A stretch of 24,420 bases of DNA from a virus, in the IMG/VR virus record IMGVR_UViG_3300017749_000126, positions 1-24,420 of that record, one strand, 5' to 3'. Below are positions 1 to 7,835 of this stretch, one piece after another. The notes beneath the pieces were generated by a model, which was not told where the DNA came from, did no database searches, and worked only from the letters and a program-made list of their open reading frames with translations. Each line of letters begins with the position of its first letter. Position 1 is the stretch's first letter. A program made the position numbers and the translations under genes.

Positions 1-511
1 TGCTTATGTAGTAATTGAAAGTAACGATGCTGGTTCAGTTGTATGTAATGGATTATATTACGATTTAGAATATGAAAATATGTTTGTAGAATCTAGTATT
101 AAGGCAAATGCTTTAGGTTGTACAATGACTAAAAGGGTAAAAAGAATTGGATGCTCAAATATAAAAGATTTAATAGAAACAAAACGAATAGATATACACG
201 ATTCTAATACAATTGTAGAATTAAGTACCTTTGTGATGAAAGGTAATTCTTATCAAGCATCACCGCCAAACCATGATGACCTTATGATGAATTTAGTTTT
301 ATTTGCATGGTTTACATCAACTGATATATTTGAAAATTTATCTAATATCGATATGAAAGATTTATTATTTAGAGAAAAGTTAGCAGCAATACAAGATGAT
401 ATGCTACCGTTTGGTTATATAGATGATGGTAATCCAGTAGGTATAAATAAAGGTATAAAGGACGATGATGGAAACATCTGGTTCGAGCAAGAGTGGAAAC
501 AGAGCTTCTAA
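1..511 (+). CDS. 17: Large terminase subunit gp17, C-terminal part (5' end outside window)
   Basis: The reading frame is open from base 2 and ends with TAA at 509-511, giving about 169 residues. This is the C-terminal nuclease half of the T4-type terminase motor, which packages and cuts the concatemeric genome. Visible marks are VIESND near the left edge (probably one of the catalytic acidic residues), LYYDLEYEN, TMTKRVKRIGCSNIKDLIE, HDSNTIVELSTFV and NHDDLMMNL, whose HDD is the conserved late acidic motif of the RNase H-like nuclease. The ATPase domain lies outside the window. The stop codon overlaps the next ATG (TAATG), so the downstream gene is probably translationally coupled. The family call is secure; only the N-terminus is missing. 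Confidence 0.93.
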   Translation, partial: AYVVIESNDAGSVVCNGLYYDLEYENMFVESSIKANALGCTMTKRVKRIGCSNIKDLIETKRIDIHDSNTIVELSTFVMKGNSYQASPPNHDDLMMNLVLFAWFTSTDIFENLSNIDMKDLLFREKLAAIQDDMLPFGYIDDGNPVGINKGIKDDDGNIWFEQEWKQSF

Positions 512-1950
512 TGGAAAAGTTTAACGATTATTTTACAGTAACAGAGCAAACAGAGGATATTCCTATTGAGGATATGCAAATTGTCATATTAGGTTATGGT
601 GATGCTGATGGCACGTTTGCTAATTTACTTAAAAAGGTTGCAAAGAAAAAGAAAATTTCATGTGAACTTATTGATGTTAATGAGGCTTTCATTTCGGCGT
701 CAGACGTTGAAATTGGTAAAGTAACTATTCAAAATTATGATGGTGAAGACAATTCATTAGATATAGAAACACGTAATACACTTATTTTTGTAAGAGGTGG
801 AGCTGTTGAAAGTTTAACTTCACAATCATTAGTATCATCTTTACAAACTATTGGATTTTTCTTGGTAAATGATTTAGAATCTATGATGTTATGTAGTAAT
901 AAAATGTCAAACGCTATTGCACTAGAAAGAAATAATATAACCATACCTAAAACATCTATTGTAAATAATGTTAAATCAATAGAAGATGCTCATAGAAGAA
1001 TTGGTGGTAAATTTCCAGTAATTATTAAAACACTGACTGGTACTCAAGGAGTTGGCGTAGCTAAAGTAAACGATATGAGTTCATTAGTTTCTGTATGTCA
1101 ATCTCTATGGAAATACGATGCATCTATTTTATTACAAGAATTTTTAGATGTAAGTTCAGATGTTAGAACTTTATTAGTAAATGGTAAAATTATTGGTGCT
1201 GCTGAAAGGGTTAGACAAAAAGAAGAAAAAGATTTTAGAAACAATGTTCACTTAGGTGCAGATACAAGACCGTATAAACTATCAGACGAAGAAAAAGAAT
1301 TAGTTATAAATGCGGCTAGAAGCAGTGGAGCCTCGTATTGTGGTGTTGACCATTGTGTATATAAAGGCACATCATATATATTAGAAGTAAACGGCAGTCC
1401 TGGTATTCGTTCTCACTTTATGGGTTACGATTATAAAACTCAAAAATCCACTAAAAAGATTTCTGATGAAGAAACAATAGAACATATATTAAACATATAT
1501 TCAGATGAGAGAACCAGAAGAGCTTTAATGAGACAAGAAGCAGGGTATATTGAAAGTATACAATTAGAAGGTATGGAACATGACCCTATTAGAGCAAAGC
1601 TTGATACTGGTAATAGTGCTACTGCTACTATGCTACATGTCGACACTATGGAAGCTGATGGAGATTTTGTAAAATGGACAAAAAATGGTTCATCTTTCAA
1701 AAGCGAGGTATTATATGTATCTGAACCACAAAGAGGTTTAAAACCATTTGATAGAAGACCAGTAATAGAACACACAATTATATTCAATAATAAACGTTAT
1801 AATGCAGAATTAGGATTATCTACCAAGGACACGGCGTCCGAAATGTTAGTTAATCGTAAATTAATGACCAAATTTAAGGTTGCAATTAACCCAAATAAAC
1901 GCTTTATACTAAGCGATGTGGTAGAAGCAAACGATTCAACAGACCATTAA
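511..1950 (+). CDS. RimK-like ATP-grasp ligase fused to RimB-like retropepsin-type protease domain
   Basis: This is a 479-residue protein starting at the ATG in a TAATG overlap with gene 17; an in-frame GTG at 493 is an alternative start. Residues about 1-130 form a pre-ATP-grasp region. Residues about 140-305 are a RimK-type ATP-grasp domain: FPVIIKTLTGTQGVGV (168-183), LLQEFLDVSSDVRTLLVNG (207-225), DFRNNVHLGA (241-250), GVDHCVYKG (278-286) and ILEVNGSPGIRSH (290-302). E. coli RimK uses this fold to add glutamates to ribosomal protein S6. Residues about 345-470 match the RimB/ATP-dependent zinc protease family: an aspartic-protease-like AKLDTGNSATATMLHV (362-377), a late RRPVIE (415-420) and an NRKLM motif. 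RimK and RimB are normally separate partners. Placement between genes 17 and 18 suggests late expression. Substrate unknown: ribosomal S6, another host protein or a virion protein are all possible. Confidence 0.8.
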   Translation: MEKFNDYFTVTEQTEDIPIEDMQIVILGYGDADGTFANLLKKVAKKKKISCELIDVNEAFISASDVEIGKVTIQNYDGEDNSLDIETRNTLIFVRGGAVESLTSQSLVSSLQTIGFFLVNDLESMMLCSNKMSNAIALERNNITIPKTSIVNNVKSIEDAHRRIGGKFPVIIKTLTGTQGVGVAKVNDMSSLVSVCQSLWKYDASILLQEFLDVSSDVRTLLVNGKIIGAAERVRQKEEKDFRNNVHLGADTRPYKLSDEEKELVINAARSSGASYCGVDHCVYKGTSYILEVNGSPGIRSHFMGYDYKTQKSTKKISDEETIEHILNIYSDERTRRALMRQEAGYIESIQLEGMEHDPIRAKLDTGNSATATMLHVDTMEADGDFVKWTKNGSSFKSEVLYVSEPQRGLKPFDRRPVIEHTIIFNNKRYNAELGLSTKDTASEMLVNRKLMTKFKVAINPNKRFILSDVVEANDSTDH

Positions 1951-1971: not shown

Positions 1972-1979
1972 TATAAATA
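1972..1979 (+). promoter_or_regulatory. T4-type late promoter upstream of gene 18
   Basis: TATAAATA, preceded by CT-type context (ACTTATAAATAATAC), lies in the 88-bp gap before the tail sheath gene. It matches the late element recognised by gp55-programmed RNA polymerase in T4. A degenerate TATAAAATA lies about 20 bp upstream. The predicted start near 1985 leaves a leader of about 50 nt ending in GAGAGG, 8 nt before the sheath ATG. Confidence 0.8.
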
Positions 1980-2038: not shown

Positions 2039-3733
2039 ATGGCATTTCAAGTATCACCAGGCGTTCAAGTCAAGGAAATTGACGCAACGAACGTAGTTCC
2101 AGCCGTATCAACCAGCATTGGTGGATTCGCAGGAGCATTCGTCTGGGGTCCAGCACATGAGGTTGTAACCGTAGGTTCTGAAAACGAACTAGCTGAAAAG
2201 TTCGGTGCACCCATTGATGCAGACACAGCGAAACACTTTTTGAATGCGGCATCTTTTTTAAAGTATGGTAACGCATTAAAAGTGGTTAGAGGAGTTGGAG
2301 CAGCACTAAACGCTACAGGCGGGACGGCTGGAAGACTCGTATCTAACGAAACAGAGTATGACCAAGCAACACTAGCGACCGGCACAGACGGTCAATGGAT
2401 TGCTAAATACCCTGGCGCTATTGGTAATTCCCTTCAAGTAGAAGTTTGTACTAACGCAGCTGGATTCGGAACATGGGCCCATAAAGGCCAATTCGAAGCA
2501 GCACCTAGTACATCCGATTACGTAAAAGGAAAAGGATTAGCAGCAGGCGCGGACGAAATGCATATAGCAGTAATTGATGAAGAAGGCCTATTTACTGGCA
2601 CAAGAGGAACTGTATTAGAAACTTTTAGTTTCCTATCACAGGCTTCTGACGCTAAGGATAGTTCAGGTTCTTCATTATTTTACAAAGACGTCATTAATAA
2701 CAAATCAGAATATATCTGGTGGGCAACCCACGATACAGGATTAACAAAAGCAGGAGACACAGTTGCAGAATTGAAGGCAGCAAGTGGTTCCGCTTATGTT
2801 ACATCTGATACCGTATTGGTTGAAGACCTAGGTTTAGGAGTATCTGATAACGCCCTAACTGCAGGCGAAGTATCGACTGCATTAGATTATTTAGCCGATG
2901 GTGAAACAGTAGATGTAAATTTATTGTTTGCAGCACCTGATGCTGATGGTGTAGATACTATCGGAGAAAAACTGATTTCTATAGCCGAGGCAAGAAAAGA
3001 TTGTATAGCATTCATTTCACCTCCTATAGACGATTCAACTGGAACAGACCCAGTTACTGACGTTGTAGCGTATGCAAATTTATTACCGTCAACATCTTAC
3101 GCATCATTAGATAGTGGTGCTGTATATTTGTATGACAAATACAACGATGTATATAGATGGATTGGAAGTAACGGCCTGTGTGCAGGTCTTTGTGCTAACA
3201 CCGATTCAGTAGCTGACGCATGGTTCTCACCAGCAGGTGTGAATAGAGGTCAATTACTAGGTGTAGCAAAATTAGCTTACAACCCAACTAAAGCTCAAAG
3301 AGACACACTTTATAAGGCAAGGATTAATCCATTAGTTTCTTTCCCAGGTCAAGGTACAATGCTTTTTGGTGATAAAACACTATTAAGTAGAGCATCAGCC
3401 TTTGATAGAATTAATGTAAGAAGATTATTCATTGTTATAGAGAAAGCGATTTCAACAGCTGCTAAATCACAACTATTTGAATTCAATGACGAATTCACAA
3501 GAGCTCAGTTTAGAAATTTACTAGAGCCATTCTTGAGAGATGTGAAAGGCAGAAGAGGAATTACAGATTTCTTAGTGGTTTGCGATGAGTCAAACAATAC
3601 CGGACAAGTAATAGATACAAATAGATTTGTAGCTGACATTTTTGTTAAGCCTGCAAGGTCTATTAACTTTATTACTCTTAATTTTATTGCAACAAGAACC
3701 GGAGTCGACTTTACTGAAGTCGCTGGCGGATAA
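2039..3733 (+). CDS. 18: Contractile tail sheath protein gp18
   Basis: This 564-residue protein begins MAFQVSPGVQVKEIDATN, the typical N-terminus of T4-like sheath proteins, followed by the conserved GGFAGAFVWGPA stretch. The C-terminal third carries the sheath core: FSPAGVNRGQLLGVAKLAYNP, RINPLVSFPGQGTMLFGDKTL, ASAFDRINVRRLFIVIEKAI, and the end KPARSINFITLNFIATRTGVDF. It is somewhat shorter than T4 gp18 (659 residues), with the difference in the variable middle domains that project from the sheath. It has a good ribosome-binding site (GAGAGG) and its own late promoter. Gene 19 follows after 12 bp and is presumably co-transcribed. Confidence 0.96.
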   Translation: MAFQVSPGVQVKEIDATNVVPAVSTSIGGFAGAFVWGPAHEVVTVGSENELAEKFGAPIDADTAKHFLNAASFLKYGNALKVVRGVGAALNATGGTAGRLVSNETEYDQATLATGTDGQWIAKYPGAIGNSLQVEVCTNAAGFGTWAHKGQFEAAPSTSDYVKGKGLAAGADEMHIAVIDEEGLFTGTRGTVLETFSFLSQASDAKDSSGSSLFYKDVINNKSEYIWWATHDTGLTKAGDTVAELKAASGSAYVTSDTVLVEDLGLGVSDNALTAGEVSTALDYLADGETVDVNLLFAAPDADGVDTIGEKLISIAEARKDCIAFISPPIDDSTGTDPVTDVVAYANLLPSTSYASLDSGAVYLYDKYNDVYRWIGSNGLCAGLCANTDSVADAWFSPAGVNRGQLLGVAKLAYNPTKAQRDTLYKARINPLVSFPGQGTMLFGDKTLLSRASAFDRINVRRLFIVIEKAISTAAKSQLFEFNDEFTRAQFRNLLEPFLRDVKGRRGITDFLVVCDESNNTGQVIDTNRFVADIFVKPARSINFITLNFIATRTGVDFTEVAGG

Positions 3734-6719: not shown

Positions 6720-7835
6720 ATGTCACTCGAAGATGTAAAAAACGAAAATCTAGTCGAAGAGGATGTGGCTGAAGAGCTTCAAGAGGAAGAGCTCGTTCAA
6801 GATGAGAATTTAGACGAGGAATCTCTAGAAGAGGATAAGAAAAAGGAAGAAGTAGAAGAAGGCGGACACGAAGAGGAAGAAGAGGAAGAAGAAAAAGAAT
6901 CTAAAGCCGAAGCCGTTTCCGTACCTAAAACTAAAGCCGGTGTTATCCAAGCAGCAGTCGAAATCCTAAAACAAGCTAGAAAAGAAGATGCGCAAAAACT
7001 CTTTGCAAAGATGACGAAAATGGATGAGTCAGAAGATGACGGTTCAGTTAAAAAGGCTGTTAATGCAGCTCCTAAAGCAGCAGCACCAAGTGTTAAAGCG
7101 AAGGTAGAATCAACTGACTTTGACGAAGATTTAGATGCACTAATCTCAGAAGAAGCAACTCTTTCCGATGAATTCAAAGGAAAAGCAGGAGCTATTTTTG
7201 AAGCTGTGTTAACATCTAAGCTTTCACAACACATCGAAAATCTTGATGCAGAGTATGCACAAAACCTAGAAGAAGAGGTATCTGAAATTCAATCAAACTT
7301 AGTAGAGAAGGTAGATTCATATCTTAACTATGTAGTTGAAAATTGGATGAAGGAAAATGAAGTTTCAGTAACTAATGGTTTAAGAACCGAAATTGCTGAA
7401 GAGTTCATGTCTTCTTTACAAACAGTGTTCAAAGAACATTATATTGAAGTTCCAGAAGGTAAAGTTGACCTTGTTGATGATTTATCAGCACAAGTCAATG
7501 AGCTAGAGGAGCAGCTCAATAAATCCACAGATGATAATATCAAACTACATCAATCAGTTCAAGATTTTGAAAAGAACGAAGTAGTAAGAGAACAATCATC
7601 AGGGCTTGCTGAAACTGAAGCTGAGAAATTAGCATCATTAGTTGAAGATATCGAATTTGATAGCAGAGAATCTTTCGAAATGAAAGTTAAAACTGTTAAA
7701 GAATCATACTTTACTAAAGATTCTAACGAAGCGGCTGATGAAGTAGCTAGTGTTATTGGAGAAGATTCAATCGATATCGATTTATCAGACCCAATGGCTA
7801 GATACACACAAGCTATAACTAAATTTAATAAATAA
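6720..7835 (+). CDS. 22: Prohead core scaffold protein gp22
   Basis: The protein has 371 residues, longer than T4 gp22 (269). The extra length is an extremely acidic N-terminus (about residues 1-65, mostly Glu, with a run of eight Glu residues) and an Ala/Lys linker. The remainder is highly helical and charged, with coiled-coil character (VDLVDDLSAQVNELEEQLNK), and ends in the typical DPMARYTQAITKFNK. The scaffold fills the prohead and is cleaved by gp21 to small peptides; many (I/L)xE sites are present. The assignment rests on position between 21 and 23, composition and the conserved C-terminus. Confidence 0.92.
   Translation: MSLEDVKNENLVEEDVAEELQEEELVQDENLDEESLEEDKKKEEVEEGGHEEEEEEEEKESKAEAVSVPKTKAGVIQAAVEILKQARKEDAQKLFAKMTKMDESEDDGSVKKAVNAAPKAAAPSVKAKVESTDFDEDLDALISEEATLSDEFKGKAGAIFEAVLTSKLSQHIENLDAEYAQNLEEEVSEIQSNLVEKVDSYLNYVVENWMKENEVSVTNGLRTEIAEEFMSSLQTVFKEHYIEVPEGKVDLVDDLSAQVNELEEQLNKSTDDNIKLHQSVQDFEKNEVVREQSSGLAETEAEKLASLVEDIEFDSRESFEMKVKTVKESYFTKDSNEAADEVASVIGEDSIDIDLSDPMARYTQAITKFNK

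What the first reader, a model, noticed from the sequence alone, without database searches (positions are those of the whole stretch)
511..1950. RimK-type ligase fused to its usual protease partner, inside the head-tail module
One protein contains an intact-looking RimK ATP-grasp domain and a RimB/zinc-protease-type DTG domain. In bacteria RimK polyglutamylates ribosomal protein S6 and RimB trims it, as separate proteins. A fusion next to gene 18 suggests a phage enzyme that both adds and removes residues, aimed at host ribosomes or at a virion protein. Established: the family roles of RimK and RimB. Seen: both motif sets in one frame without a stop. Inferred: the coupling of activities.
Basis: partly seen in the sequence, partly recalled or inferred. 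Interest (0 to 1): 0.8.

Follow-up and report, generated by a model that had tools for sequence, protein, structure and literature searches.

The report
Phage protein-tagging enzyme fused to trimmer
A virus of marine bacteria carries one protein that joins an enzyme of the kind that adds glutamate tails to proteins with a protease of the kind that trims such tails; the same two-in-one gene recurs at different places in several phage lineages, so it looks like a portable tool for controlling the infected cell rather than a part of the virus particle.

Summary
ORF 511-1950 (479 aa) is a real K-B fusion: a RimK-type ATP-grasp ligase (Pfam RimK 1.5e-34; best folds RimK, Z 27.9) followed by a RimB/RloA-type retropepsin domain (Z 14.1 to RloA), an aspartic, not a zinc, protease fold. 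Catalytic residues of both halves are invariant in 100 of 100 full-length relatives and in 79 of 79 of a second lineage; both halves are under purifying selection. The inference from position also fails: the gene is an optional insert between gene 17 and the gene 18 late promoter (33 of 45 readable junctions carry it, 12 do not); elsewhere it sits beside regA and gene 43 (Mosig type) or directly behind a perfect sigma-70 promoter (14 of 31 group II loci). Most likely it is an accessory host-takeover enzyme that adds and trims glutamate tails on a host protein, with ribosomal protein S6 the leading but unproven target. New variant of a known kind. Activity, amino acid and target are untested.

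The parts
511..1950 (+). K-B fusion gene ('RKB'), 479 aa: RimK-type ATP-grasp ligase followed by a RimB/RloA-type retropepsin domain
841..1440 (+). ATP-grasp part (residues 111-310); K131, K173, D217, R219, R233, R243, N245, D280, E292, N294 invariant in 100 of 100
   Evidence: alignment to RimK structures
1441..1542 (+). linker (residues 311-344), less constrained than either domain (median dN/dS 0.119)
1543..1914 (+). RimB/RloA-type retropepsin domain (residues 345-468)
1603..1611 (+). catalytic motif DTG, residues 365-367 (D and G 100 of 100; T 84, S 16), followed by N368 (100 of 100) where the cellular RimB-type rows read here have A
509..513 (+). TAATG overlap of the gene 17 stop and the fusion's start codon
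2..511 (+). 3' end of gene 17 (terminase large subunit), upstream neighbour
1972..1979 (+). TATAAATA, late-promoter-like box that belongs to gene 18; within 140 nt downstream of the fusion in 68 of 71 group I loci and in the empty site of 12 of 12 non-carriers
2039..3733 (+). gene 18 tail sheath, downstream neighbour

Best explanation
An accessory phage enzyme that writes and trims glutamate tails in one polypeptide. The N-terminal RimK-type ATP-grasp domain would use ATP to ligate glutamate, one after another, to the C-terminus of a target protein. The C-terminal RimB/RloA-type retropepsin domain, pairing with that of a second subunit, would cut poly-glutamate and may stimulate the ligase, as RimB stimulates RimK in Pseudomonas. 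Fusion would fix the two at one to one and hold the tail at a set length. The gene is cargo: it sits at different sites in T4-like marine phages and is most simply read as a host-takeover gene acting on a host protein, with ribosomal protein bS6 the leading candidate. Shown here: the architecture, invariant catalytic residues, purifying selection on both halves, the opposite domain order to the published bacterial hybrid, and the changing genomic position. Inferred: both activities, glutamate as the amino acid, dimerisation in the fusion, early action and the target. My sub-estimates: architecture 0.95, both domains catalytic 0.75, glutamate chemistry 0.65, host rather than virion target 0.6, bS6 itself 0.35.
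For: ATP-grasp: Pfam RimK 1.5e-34; top structural matches are RimK, including RimK with RpsF 5zk6 Z 26.7; RimK residues K100, K141, D187, R189, R211, N213, D248, E260, N262 (numbers counted on the alignment; their roles recalled) are conserved as K131, K173, D217, R219, R243, N245, D280, E292, N294 in 100 of 100 and 79 of 79. Protease; D365 and G367 in 100 of 100 and 79 of 79; the poly-Glu contacts K46 and R114 described for RloA (PMC12239564) map, by the alignment and spacing, to K363 and R416, invariant in both sets, and R137 maps to position 439 (K 86, T 9, R 4, L 1 of 100; R 79 of 79). Bacterial precedent that RimB cuts RpsF tails and stimulates RimK: PMC11957791. Cargo, not a structural gene: 33 of 45 readable gene 17-18 junctions have it, 12 have 81-91 nt with the gene 18 late box instead; Mosig-type copies lie behind regA in 79 of 80 (1 at a contig end); group II copies have a perfect TTGACA-N17-TATAAT 5-6 nt before the ATG in 14 of 31 usable loci. 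YerA41's copy is of the middle expression class (PMC7354516, matched by gene order). Two-sided constraint.
Against: No activity has been measured. The window protein misses the curated cut-offs of PF05618 (23.3 of 27), TIGR00768 (135.9 of 143.4) and the S6-ligase equivalog NF007764 (84 of 331). The protease motif is DTGN in the full-length phage copies, DTGA or DSGA in the cellular RimB-type sequences read, which could change specificity; YerA41 has Leu at the K363 position. The one bacterial hybrid tested cut tails but did not glutamylate the RpsF offered (PMC11957791). In the window's own lineage the gene overlaps late gene 17, which fits late expression, and 7 of 69 group I copies have TATAAATA within 150 nt upstream, as the window does (442-449). 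17 of 31 group II copies lack the perfect promoter. YerA41's copy was found in purified particles (PMC7354516), though with polymerases and nucleases too. The ligase tree puts the Mosig, Melnitz and YerA41 ligase parts with the cellular side (88/83, midpoint root), so one origin of the phage fusion is not shown. The host, and the C-terminus of its S6, are unknown.
Confidence: 0.5

Rival explanations
1. The target is a virion or assembly protein: the fusion tags a head or tail protein, or its protease half cuts an acidic run in one, and the place between genes 17 and 18 reflects that.
For: Position beside genes 17 and 18 in 74 of 106 distinct viral-contig loci classified (Mosig-type loci, fetched later, not in this count). 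The window's scaffold protein gp22 has a run of 8 Glu, and RimB cuts an internal 8-Glu linker (PMC11957791). Runs of 5 or more Glu alone are in 10 of 24 carriers and 1 of 8 non-carriers (counted from the listing). YerA41's copy was found in purified particles (PMC7354516).
Against: Other lineages keep it away from genes 17 and 18. Acidic (Glu or Asp) runs of 5 or more in gp22 occur in 13 of 24 carriers and in 8 of 8 non-carriers, so they do not track the gene. The insert is precise and optional. YerA41 particle proteins include many replication enzymes.
Confidence: 0.13
2. The ligase half adds something other than protein-linked glutamate: free poly-alpha-glutamate, another amino acid, or a small-molecule substrate, as in other RimK-like enzymes.
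For: Second-best NCBIfam match is the tetrahydromethanopterin:glutamate ligase MptN, 119.1 bits, and LysX/ArgX structures follow RimK closely (Z 26.8 and 26.6). RimK itself makes free poly-Glu (PMC11957791). The S6-ligase equivalog cut-off is far from met.
Against: The fused RimB-type domain, a protease whose characterised relatives cut poly-Glu, keeps the mapped poly-Glu contacts K363 and R416. I saw no LysW-like carrier gene kept beside the fusion, but made no search for one; a YerA41 gene 3.6 kb away bears a LysW-like note in its record.
Confidence: 0.2
3. The enzyme works against a host RimK/RimB system: the protease half strips host-made glutamate tails and the ligase half mainly positions the substrate.
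For: The tested bacterial hybrid showed protease but no ligase activity on RpsF (PMC11957791).
Against: Ligase residues are invariant in 100 of 100 and 79 of 79 and the ATP-grasp half is the more constrained of the two (median dN/dS 0.051 against 0.086). Melnitz keeps a ligase alone at the matching locus.
Confidence: 0.1

Closest known systems
Bacterial RimBK hybrid (Desulfotalea psychrophila DP2392; Little et al. 2025, PMC11957791)
   Same: One polypeptide with a RimK ATP-grasp ligase and a RimB retropepsin domain; mostly in Flavobacteriales and Rhodobacterales, largely aquatic (their text).
   Different: RimB is N-terminal there and in the two plasmid hybrids read here (Thioclava L125, Aureibacter L126), C-terminal in the phage; the two plasmid hybrids' RimK parts group with bacterial RimK (91/97, drawn open), and 14 of 14 phage RimB domains form one clade (100/98).
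Separate RimK and RimB of Pseudomonas and others
   Same: Same two domains, same catalytic residues, same inferred chemistry.
   Different: Separate genes, in Pseudomonas with a third partner RimA; DTGA in the cellular RimB read versus DTGN in the phage; distant in sequence (27-35% over the ligase part in the plasmid hits listed; 22% between the window's protease part and Vibrio RimB).
[quoted passage not shown] PMC12239564)
   Same: RloA structures are among the best fold matches of the C-terminal domain; two MAG contigs carry a TIGR02291-type ligase fused to a C-terminal RloA-type domain, i.e. ligase-protease order (that TIGR02291 is RloC's type is my inference).
   Different: RloA proteases are secreted; the ligase of the MAG fusions belongs to another ATP-grasp subfamily (TIGR02291), the phage ligase half is RimK-type.
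Fusion proteins of pelagiphage Mosig EXVC030M and Yersinia phages YerA41 and vB_Yru_GN1
   Same: Same K-B order; DTGN motif in Mosig and YerA41. Named 'glutathione synthetase' or 'structural protein' in the records; the YerA41 paper's table has 'Ribosomal protein modification protein'.
   Different: 26-29% identity to the window protein and other gene neighbourhoods (regA and gene 43; ribonucleotide reductase).
Cyanophage 'ribosomal protein S6 glutaminyl transferase' (S-RIM8, S-RIM12, S-RIM32; S-RIM8-type RimK noted in PMC6722890)
   Same: RimK-type ligase in T4-like marine phages, in S-RIM8 just upstream of gene 17.
   Different: About 296 aa, ligase only in the two I read (S-RIM8, S-RIM12), and a separate origin: these two group with a Pseudoalteromonas ligase (100/100).

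Membership tests
RimK-type ATP-grasp ligases (PF08443) | Score over the curated Pfam cut-off | tested here: met
   119.7 bits against 21
RimK-type ATP-grasp ligases (PF08443) | RimK fold with ATP- and metal-binding residues | tested here: met
   Z 27.9 to 7qys over 288 residues; residues aligned with K141, D248, E260, N262 of RimK invariant in 100 of 100
RimK subfamily and S6-specific RimK (TIGR00768, NF007764) | Score over the curated NCBIfam cut-offs | tested here: not met
   135.9 of 143.4 and 84 of 331 bits; so not filed as the S6 ligase
RimK subfamily and S6-specific RimK (TIGR00768, NF007764) | Adds glutamate to the C-terminus of S6 | not testable with these tools
   needs an assay
RimB-type retropepsins (PF05618, clan AA) | Score over the Pfam cut-off of 27 bits | tested here: not met
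   23.3 bits for the window protein; same-architecture relatives Mosig 28.0 and YerA41 29.0 pass, L037 26.1 and L042 25.4 do not
RimB-type retropepsins (PF05618, clan AA) | Retropepsin fold closest to RimB/RloA-type structures | tested here: met
   9g58 Z 14.1, 2pma 14.0, 9g59 12.9; retroviral proteases 9.4 and lower; profile hits
RimB-type retropepsins (PF05618, clan AA) | Catalytic D-[TS]-G | tested here: met
   D and G in 100 of 100, T 84 and S 16; 79 of 79 DTG in the Mosig type
RimB-type retropepsins (PF05618, clan AA) | Cleaves poly-glutamate; active as a dimer | not testable with these tools
   needs an assay
Bacterial RimBK hybrid | RimB N-terminal, RimK C-terminal | tested here: not met
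   phage order is RimK then RimB in the full-length copies aligned

The most novel reading that the evidence does not exclude
T4-like marine phages carry a portable, self-contained ribosome-tuning enzyme: it adds and trims glutamate tails on host bS6, changing the 30S platform to favour phage mRNAs. In one lineage it is made at once from a probably leaderless early mRNA, and the marine carriers examined also bring their own bS21, a neighbour of bS6 on the platform (position recalled).
Probability: 0.17. Interest if true: 0.85.

Novelty: new variant of a known kind. Interest (0 to 1): 0.56.

Why it matters
Reversible C-terminal glutamylation of the ribosome is a recently worked-out bacterial control. 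A widespread phage gene holding both the writer and the trimmer, in the opposite order to the published bacterial hybrid, suggests that phages use this modification too, and offers a compact enzyme in which ligase and protease coupling can be tested. It also bears on names in public records: 'glutathione synthetase' in Mosig and 'structural protein' in YerA41 and GN1 hide this enzyme. A cultured pelagiphage (Mosig, host HTCC1062) carries it, so the question can be tested.

Tried and rejected
Virion-substrate idea from an acidic run: the window's gp22 has 8 consecutive Glu, but runs of 5 or more acidic residues are in 13 of 24 carriers and 8 of 8 non-carriers; dropped. Counting Glu alone (5 or more), the same listing gives 10 of 24 and 1 of 8, one lineage and too few to use. 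In six named reference phages no gp22 has such a run, but they are more distant.

K-B fusion in Vibrio: tblastn joined residues 114-468 in Vibrio campbellii, but the ORFs are two adjacent genes, rimK then rimB; not a fusion. I did not check the ORFs of the second Vibrio record.

Bacterial source of the RimK-type K-B order: the one genome-contig scan gave 2 loci, both with a lone RimK-like gene matching the query; the ligase-protease fusions beside them have a TIGR02291-type ligase and an RloA-type protease. That scan used phage-like motifs and would miss canonical RimK, so absence in bacteria is not shown.

A phage-coded S6 as target: no PF01250 match in 8 of 8 records, six of them contigs that may be fragments. 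A phage-coded bS21 as target: of six sequences read besides Mosig's, four end in Arg or Lys, one in RRY, and HTVC008M's ends REREQ; two further loci (L298, L300) were not recovered by that script (an earlier attempt found none of the eight). bS21 co-carriage (8 of 9 fusion carriers searched; also Melnitz and HTVC008M, not C48C1, S-BM3 or S-SKS1) is weak: few records, shared ancestry. YerA41_074, noted as LysW-like in its record, does not end like LysW (LysW recalled).

Whole-protein fold search did not list RimB-type structures among its 50 rows, because the ligase filled the list; the domain was therefore folded alone.

Recount: searches counted a few re-fetched copies or placed one group II locus (L108) into group I. 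recount without these faults; the report uses those numbers. Earlier values: 103 full-length copies, dN/dS 0.049 and 0.087, late box 68 of 74 and 7 of 70, promoter 13 of 30 and 1 of 71. No conclusion or odds changed.

Papers: read by passages PMC11957791, PMC12239564, PMC7354516, PMC4431377, PMC6722890, PMC9004378, PMC7824862, PMC10580990; PMC7343187 seen in the search listing only. Iyer et al. 2009 (amidoligases) is not held and may mention phage ATP-grasp ligases. I found no paper on a phage RimK-RimB fusion in searches, which cover CC-licensed PMC papers only and list titles and abstract starts.
Full report
1. The thing itself. ORF 511-1950 on the + strand encodes 479 aa. Its ATG overlaps the stop of gene 17 (TAATG, 509-513) and it ends 88 nt before gene 18. 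The listed ORF begins with GTG 493; conservation supports ATG 511. Pfam gives RimK PF08443 at 1.5e-34 and the RimB family PF05618 at 6.5e-5, the latter under its cut-off (23.3 of 27 bits). Relatives of the same build in Mosig and YerA41 pass that cut-off (28.0 and 29.0 bits); L037 and L042 do not (26.1 and 25.4). NCBIfam places it near, but under, the RimK subfamily cut-off (135.9 of 143.4) and far from the S6-ligase equivalog (84 of 331).

2. Folds. A model of the whole protein (24-row alignment, mean pLDDT 77.3) matches RimK first: 7qys Z 27.9, rmsd 2.9 over 288 residues, and RimK bound to RpsF, 5zk6, Z 26.7; LysX and ArgX stand at 26.8 and 26.6, so the fold does not separate RimK from these relatives. 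The C-terminal domain modelled alone (residues 340-479, mean pLDDT 83.2) matches the RimB/RloA-type proteases 9g58 (Z 14.1), 2pma (14.0) and 9g59 (12.9), then retroviral proteases from 9.4 down. Sequence profiles agree: 9g59 at 1.7e-8 with the 13-row profile and 1.4e-5 with the domain profile. So the protease half is an aspartic, retropepsin-like domain; 'zinc protease' is an old family name (PMC11957791 and PMC12239564, passages).

3. Conservation. In 100 full-length copies from distinct viral contigs (75 different proteins, 54 clusters at 95% identity) the residues aligned with RimK's ATP and metal sites are invariant, as are D365, G367 and N368; position 366 is T in 84 and S in 16. By alignment to RloA2 and RloA and the contacts listed in PMC12239564, K363 and R416 correspond to poly-Glu contacts K46 and R114 (100 of 100 each), and position 439 to R137 (K 86, T 9, R 4, L 1). 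This mapping is my inference from alignment and spacing. In the Mosig type the same positions are invariant in 79 of 79, with R at 439. Median dN/dS (Nei-Gojobori; 262 pairs at 88-98.5% identity, 233 and 253 usable) is 0.051 for the ATP-grasp part and 0.086 for the protease part. Both halves are kept, so both probably work. One difference runs through the full-length phage copies: DTGN, where the cellular sequences read have DTGA or DSGA. YerA41 also has Leu at the K363 position.

4. Where it lives. Of 106 distinct viral-contig loci classified, 74 show the gene between genes 17 and 18 (66) or beside one of them (8) (group I), and 32 lie just upstream of a small gene of family phrog_7595 (group II). 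Group II surroundings in L037 are nucleotide-metabolism and lysis genes, and its primase is nearest to Sinorhizobium T4-like phages. A scan with the Mosig protein gave 221 viral loci; of the 80 kept, 79 have regA directly upstream (1 at a contig end) and 67 have gene 43 downstream (13 at contig ends). YerA41 has it beside ribonucleotide reductase. Melnitz has only the ligase at the Mosig site.

5. It is cargo. The gene 17-18 junction could be read in 45 of these 80: 33 carry the fusion and 12 do not. In the 12 empty sites 81-91 nt separate gene 17 from gene 18, all with TATAAATA and a tract resembling the one between the fusion and gene 18 in the window. TATAAATA lies within 140 nt downstream of the fusion in 68 of 71 group I loci and within 150 nt upstream in 7 of 69. 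In the window this box occurs 10 times against 4.6 expected (4 of 100 shuffles reach 10); that it is the T4-type late promoter box is recalled. So the gene was inserted between the gene 17 stop and the gene 18 promoter. Nearness to gene 18 says little about its target.

6. Timing. In group II, 14 of 31 usable loci have a perfect TTGACA-N17-TATAAT whose TATAAT ends 5 or 6 nt before the ATG (13 of 30, plus L108); near-identical contigs are counted apart, and among the 30 the 13 amount to 7 different upstream sequences of 16. In group I one search found 1 site within 2 mismatches in 71, and that one is L108, which belongs to group II (inferred from the sequence printed). The group II loci hold 38 perfect sites in 300,201 bases of the + strand, 13 of them ahead of the fusion; simple shuffles of two loci gave means of 0.0 and 0.05. 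The promoter types share the boxes but not the 17-nt spacer, which points to selection. A start 6-7 nt past the TATAAT would make the mRNA leaderless; this is inference. YerA41's copy (g112, matched to YerA41_066 by gene order, my inference) peaks in the middle class and was detected in purified particles, together with polymerases and nucleases (PMC7354516). In the window's lineage, overlap with gene 17 fits late expression. Timing therefore differs by lineage, and on balance speaks for a role in the infected cell.

7. Relation to bacteria. [quoted passage not shown] Two plasmid-borne hybrids (Thioclava, Aureibacter; annotated rimK) have the same B-K order. In trees of 26 ligase and 21 protease sequences, the two hybrids' ligase parts lie with bacterial RimK (fork 91/97, drawn open), and all 14 phage protease domains used form one clade (100/98). 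In the ligase tree, however, the parts of Mosig, Melnitz and YerA41 fall with the cellular side (88/83, midpoint root), and long branches make this unsure; one origin of the phage fusion is not shown. The two cyanophage ligases used group with a Pseudoalteromonas ligase, a separate acquisition. Ligase-then-protease order also exists in two bacterial MAGs, but with a TIGR02291-type ligase. Phage K-B fusion is thus a new variant, not a new kind.

8. Target. No ribosomal protein S6 gene was found in 8 of 8 records searched, some of which may be fragments, so an S6 target would be the host's. bS21 genes are in 8 of 9 fusion-carrying records searched (not YerA41) but also in HTVC008M without the fusion and in Melnitz with the ligase alone, and not found in three other non-carriers. 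That is a theme, not proof. Phage ATP-grasp ligases have been proposed to modify host proteins (R2K families: PMC4431377, PMC7824862, passages). The virion-target rival was tested through the acidic run of gp22 and not supported.

9. Verdict. Interest lies in a widespread, mobile, intact writer-plus-trimmer in phages that can be tested in culture.

Noticed in passing
L019 165, L034 266: Group II phage loci hold perfect TTGACA-N17-TATAAT promoters elsewhere too, some only 2-7 nt before an ATG; whether those ATGs start genes was not checked, and in L020 the listed ORF near the first one starts 7 nt further on.
   Followed up: no
L057 3581-4975 and L058 3512-4912: Two bacterial MAG contigs carry a TIGR02291-type ATP-grasp ligase fused to a C-terminal RloA-type retropepsin, followed by a lone RimK-like gene.
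   Followed up: partly
window 6720-7835: Scaffold protein gp22 has a run of 8 Glu near its N-terminus; acidic runs there come and go among relatives.
   Followed up: yes
L297, L299, L301, L302, L303: Phage-coded bS21 of group I contigs has an N-terminal stretch like PRKRHPRDKRP that Mosig's bS21 lacks.
   Followed up: no
L004 82-1131 and L005 7761-8810: Melnitz phages keep a ligase-only gene near regA and the DNA polymerase where Mosig has the full fusion: loss of the protease domain or an ancestral ligase-only state.
   Followed up: no
L037 9410-9781 and L020 8656-9027: A 123-aa gene of unknown family phrog_7595 overlaps the stop of the fusion in group II; the family was found in 5 of 5 group II records and 0 of 6 others. 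Possible partner or substrate.
   Followed up: partly
L006 5686-6564: In cyanophage S-RIM8 a ligase-only rimK lies just upstream of gene 17, so the gene 17-18 region may be a landing site for more than one such gene.
   Followed up: no
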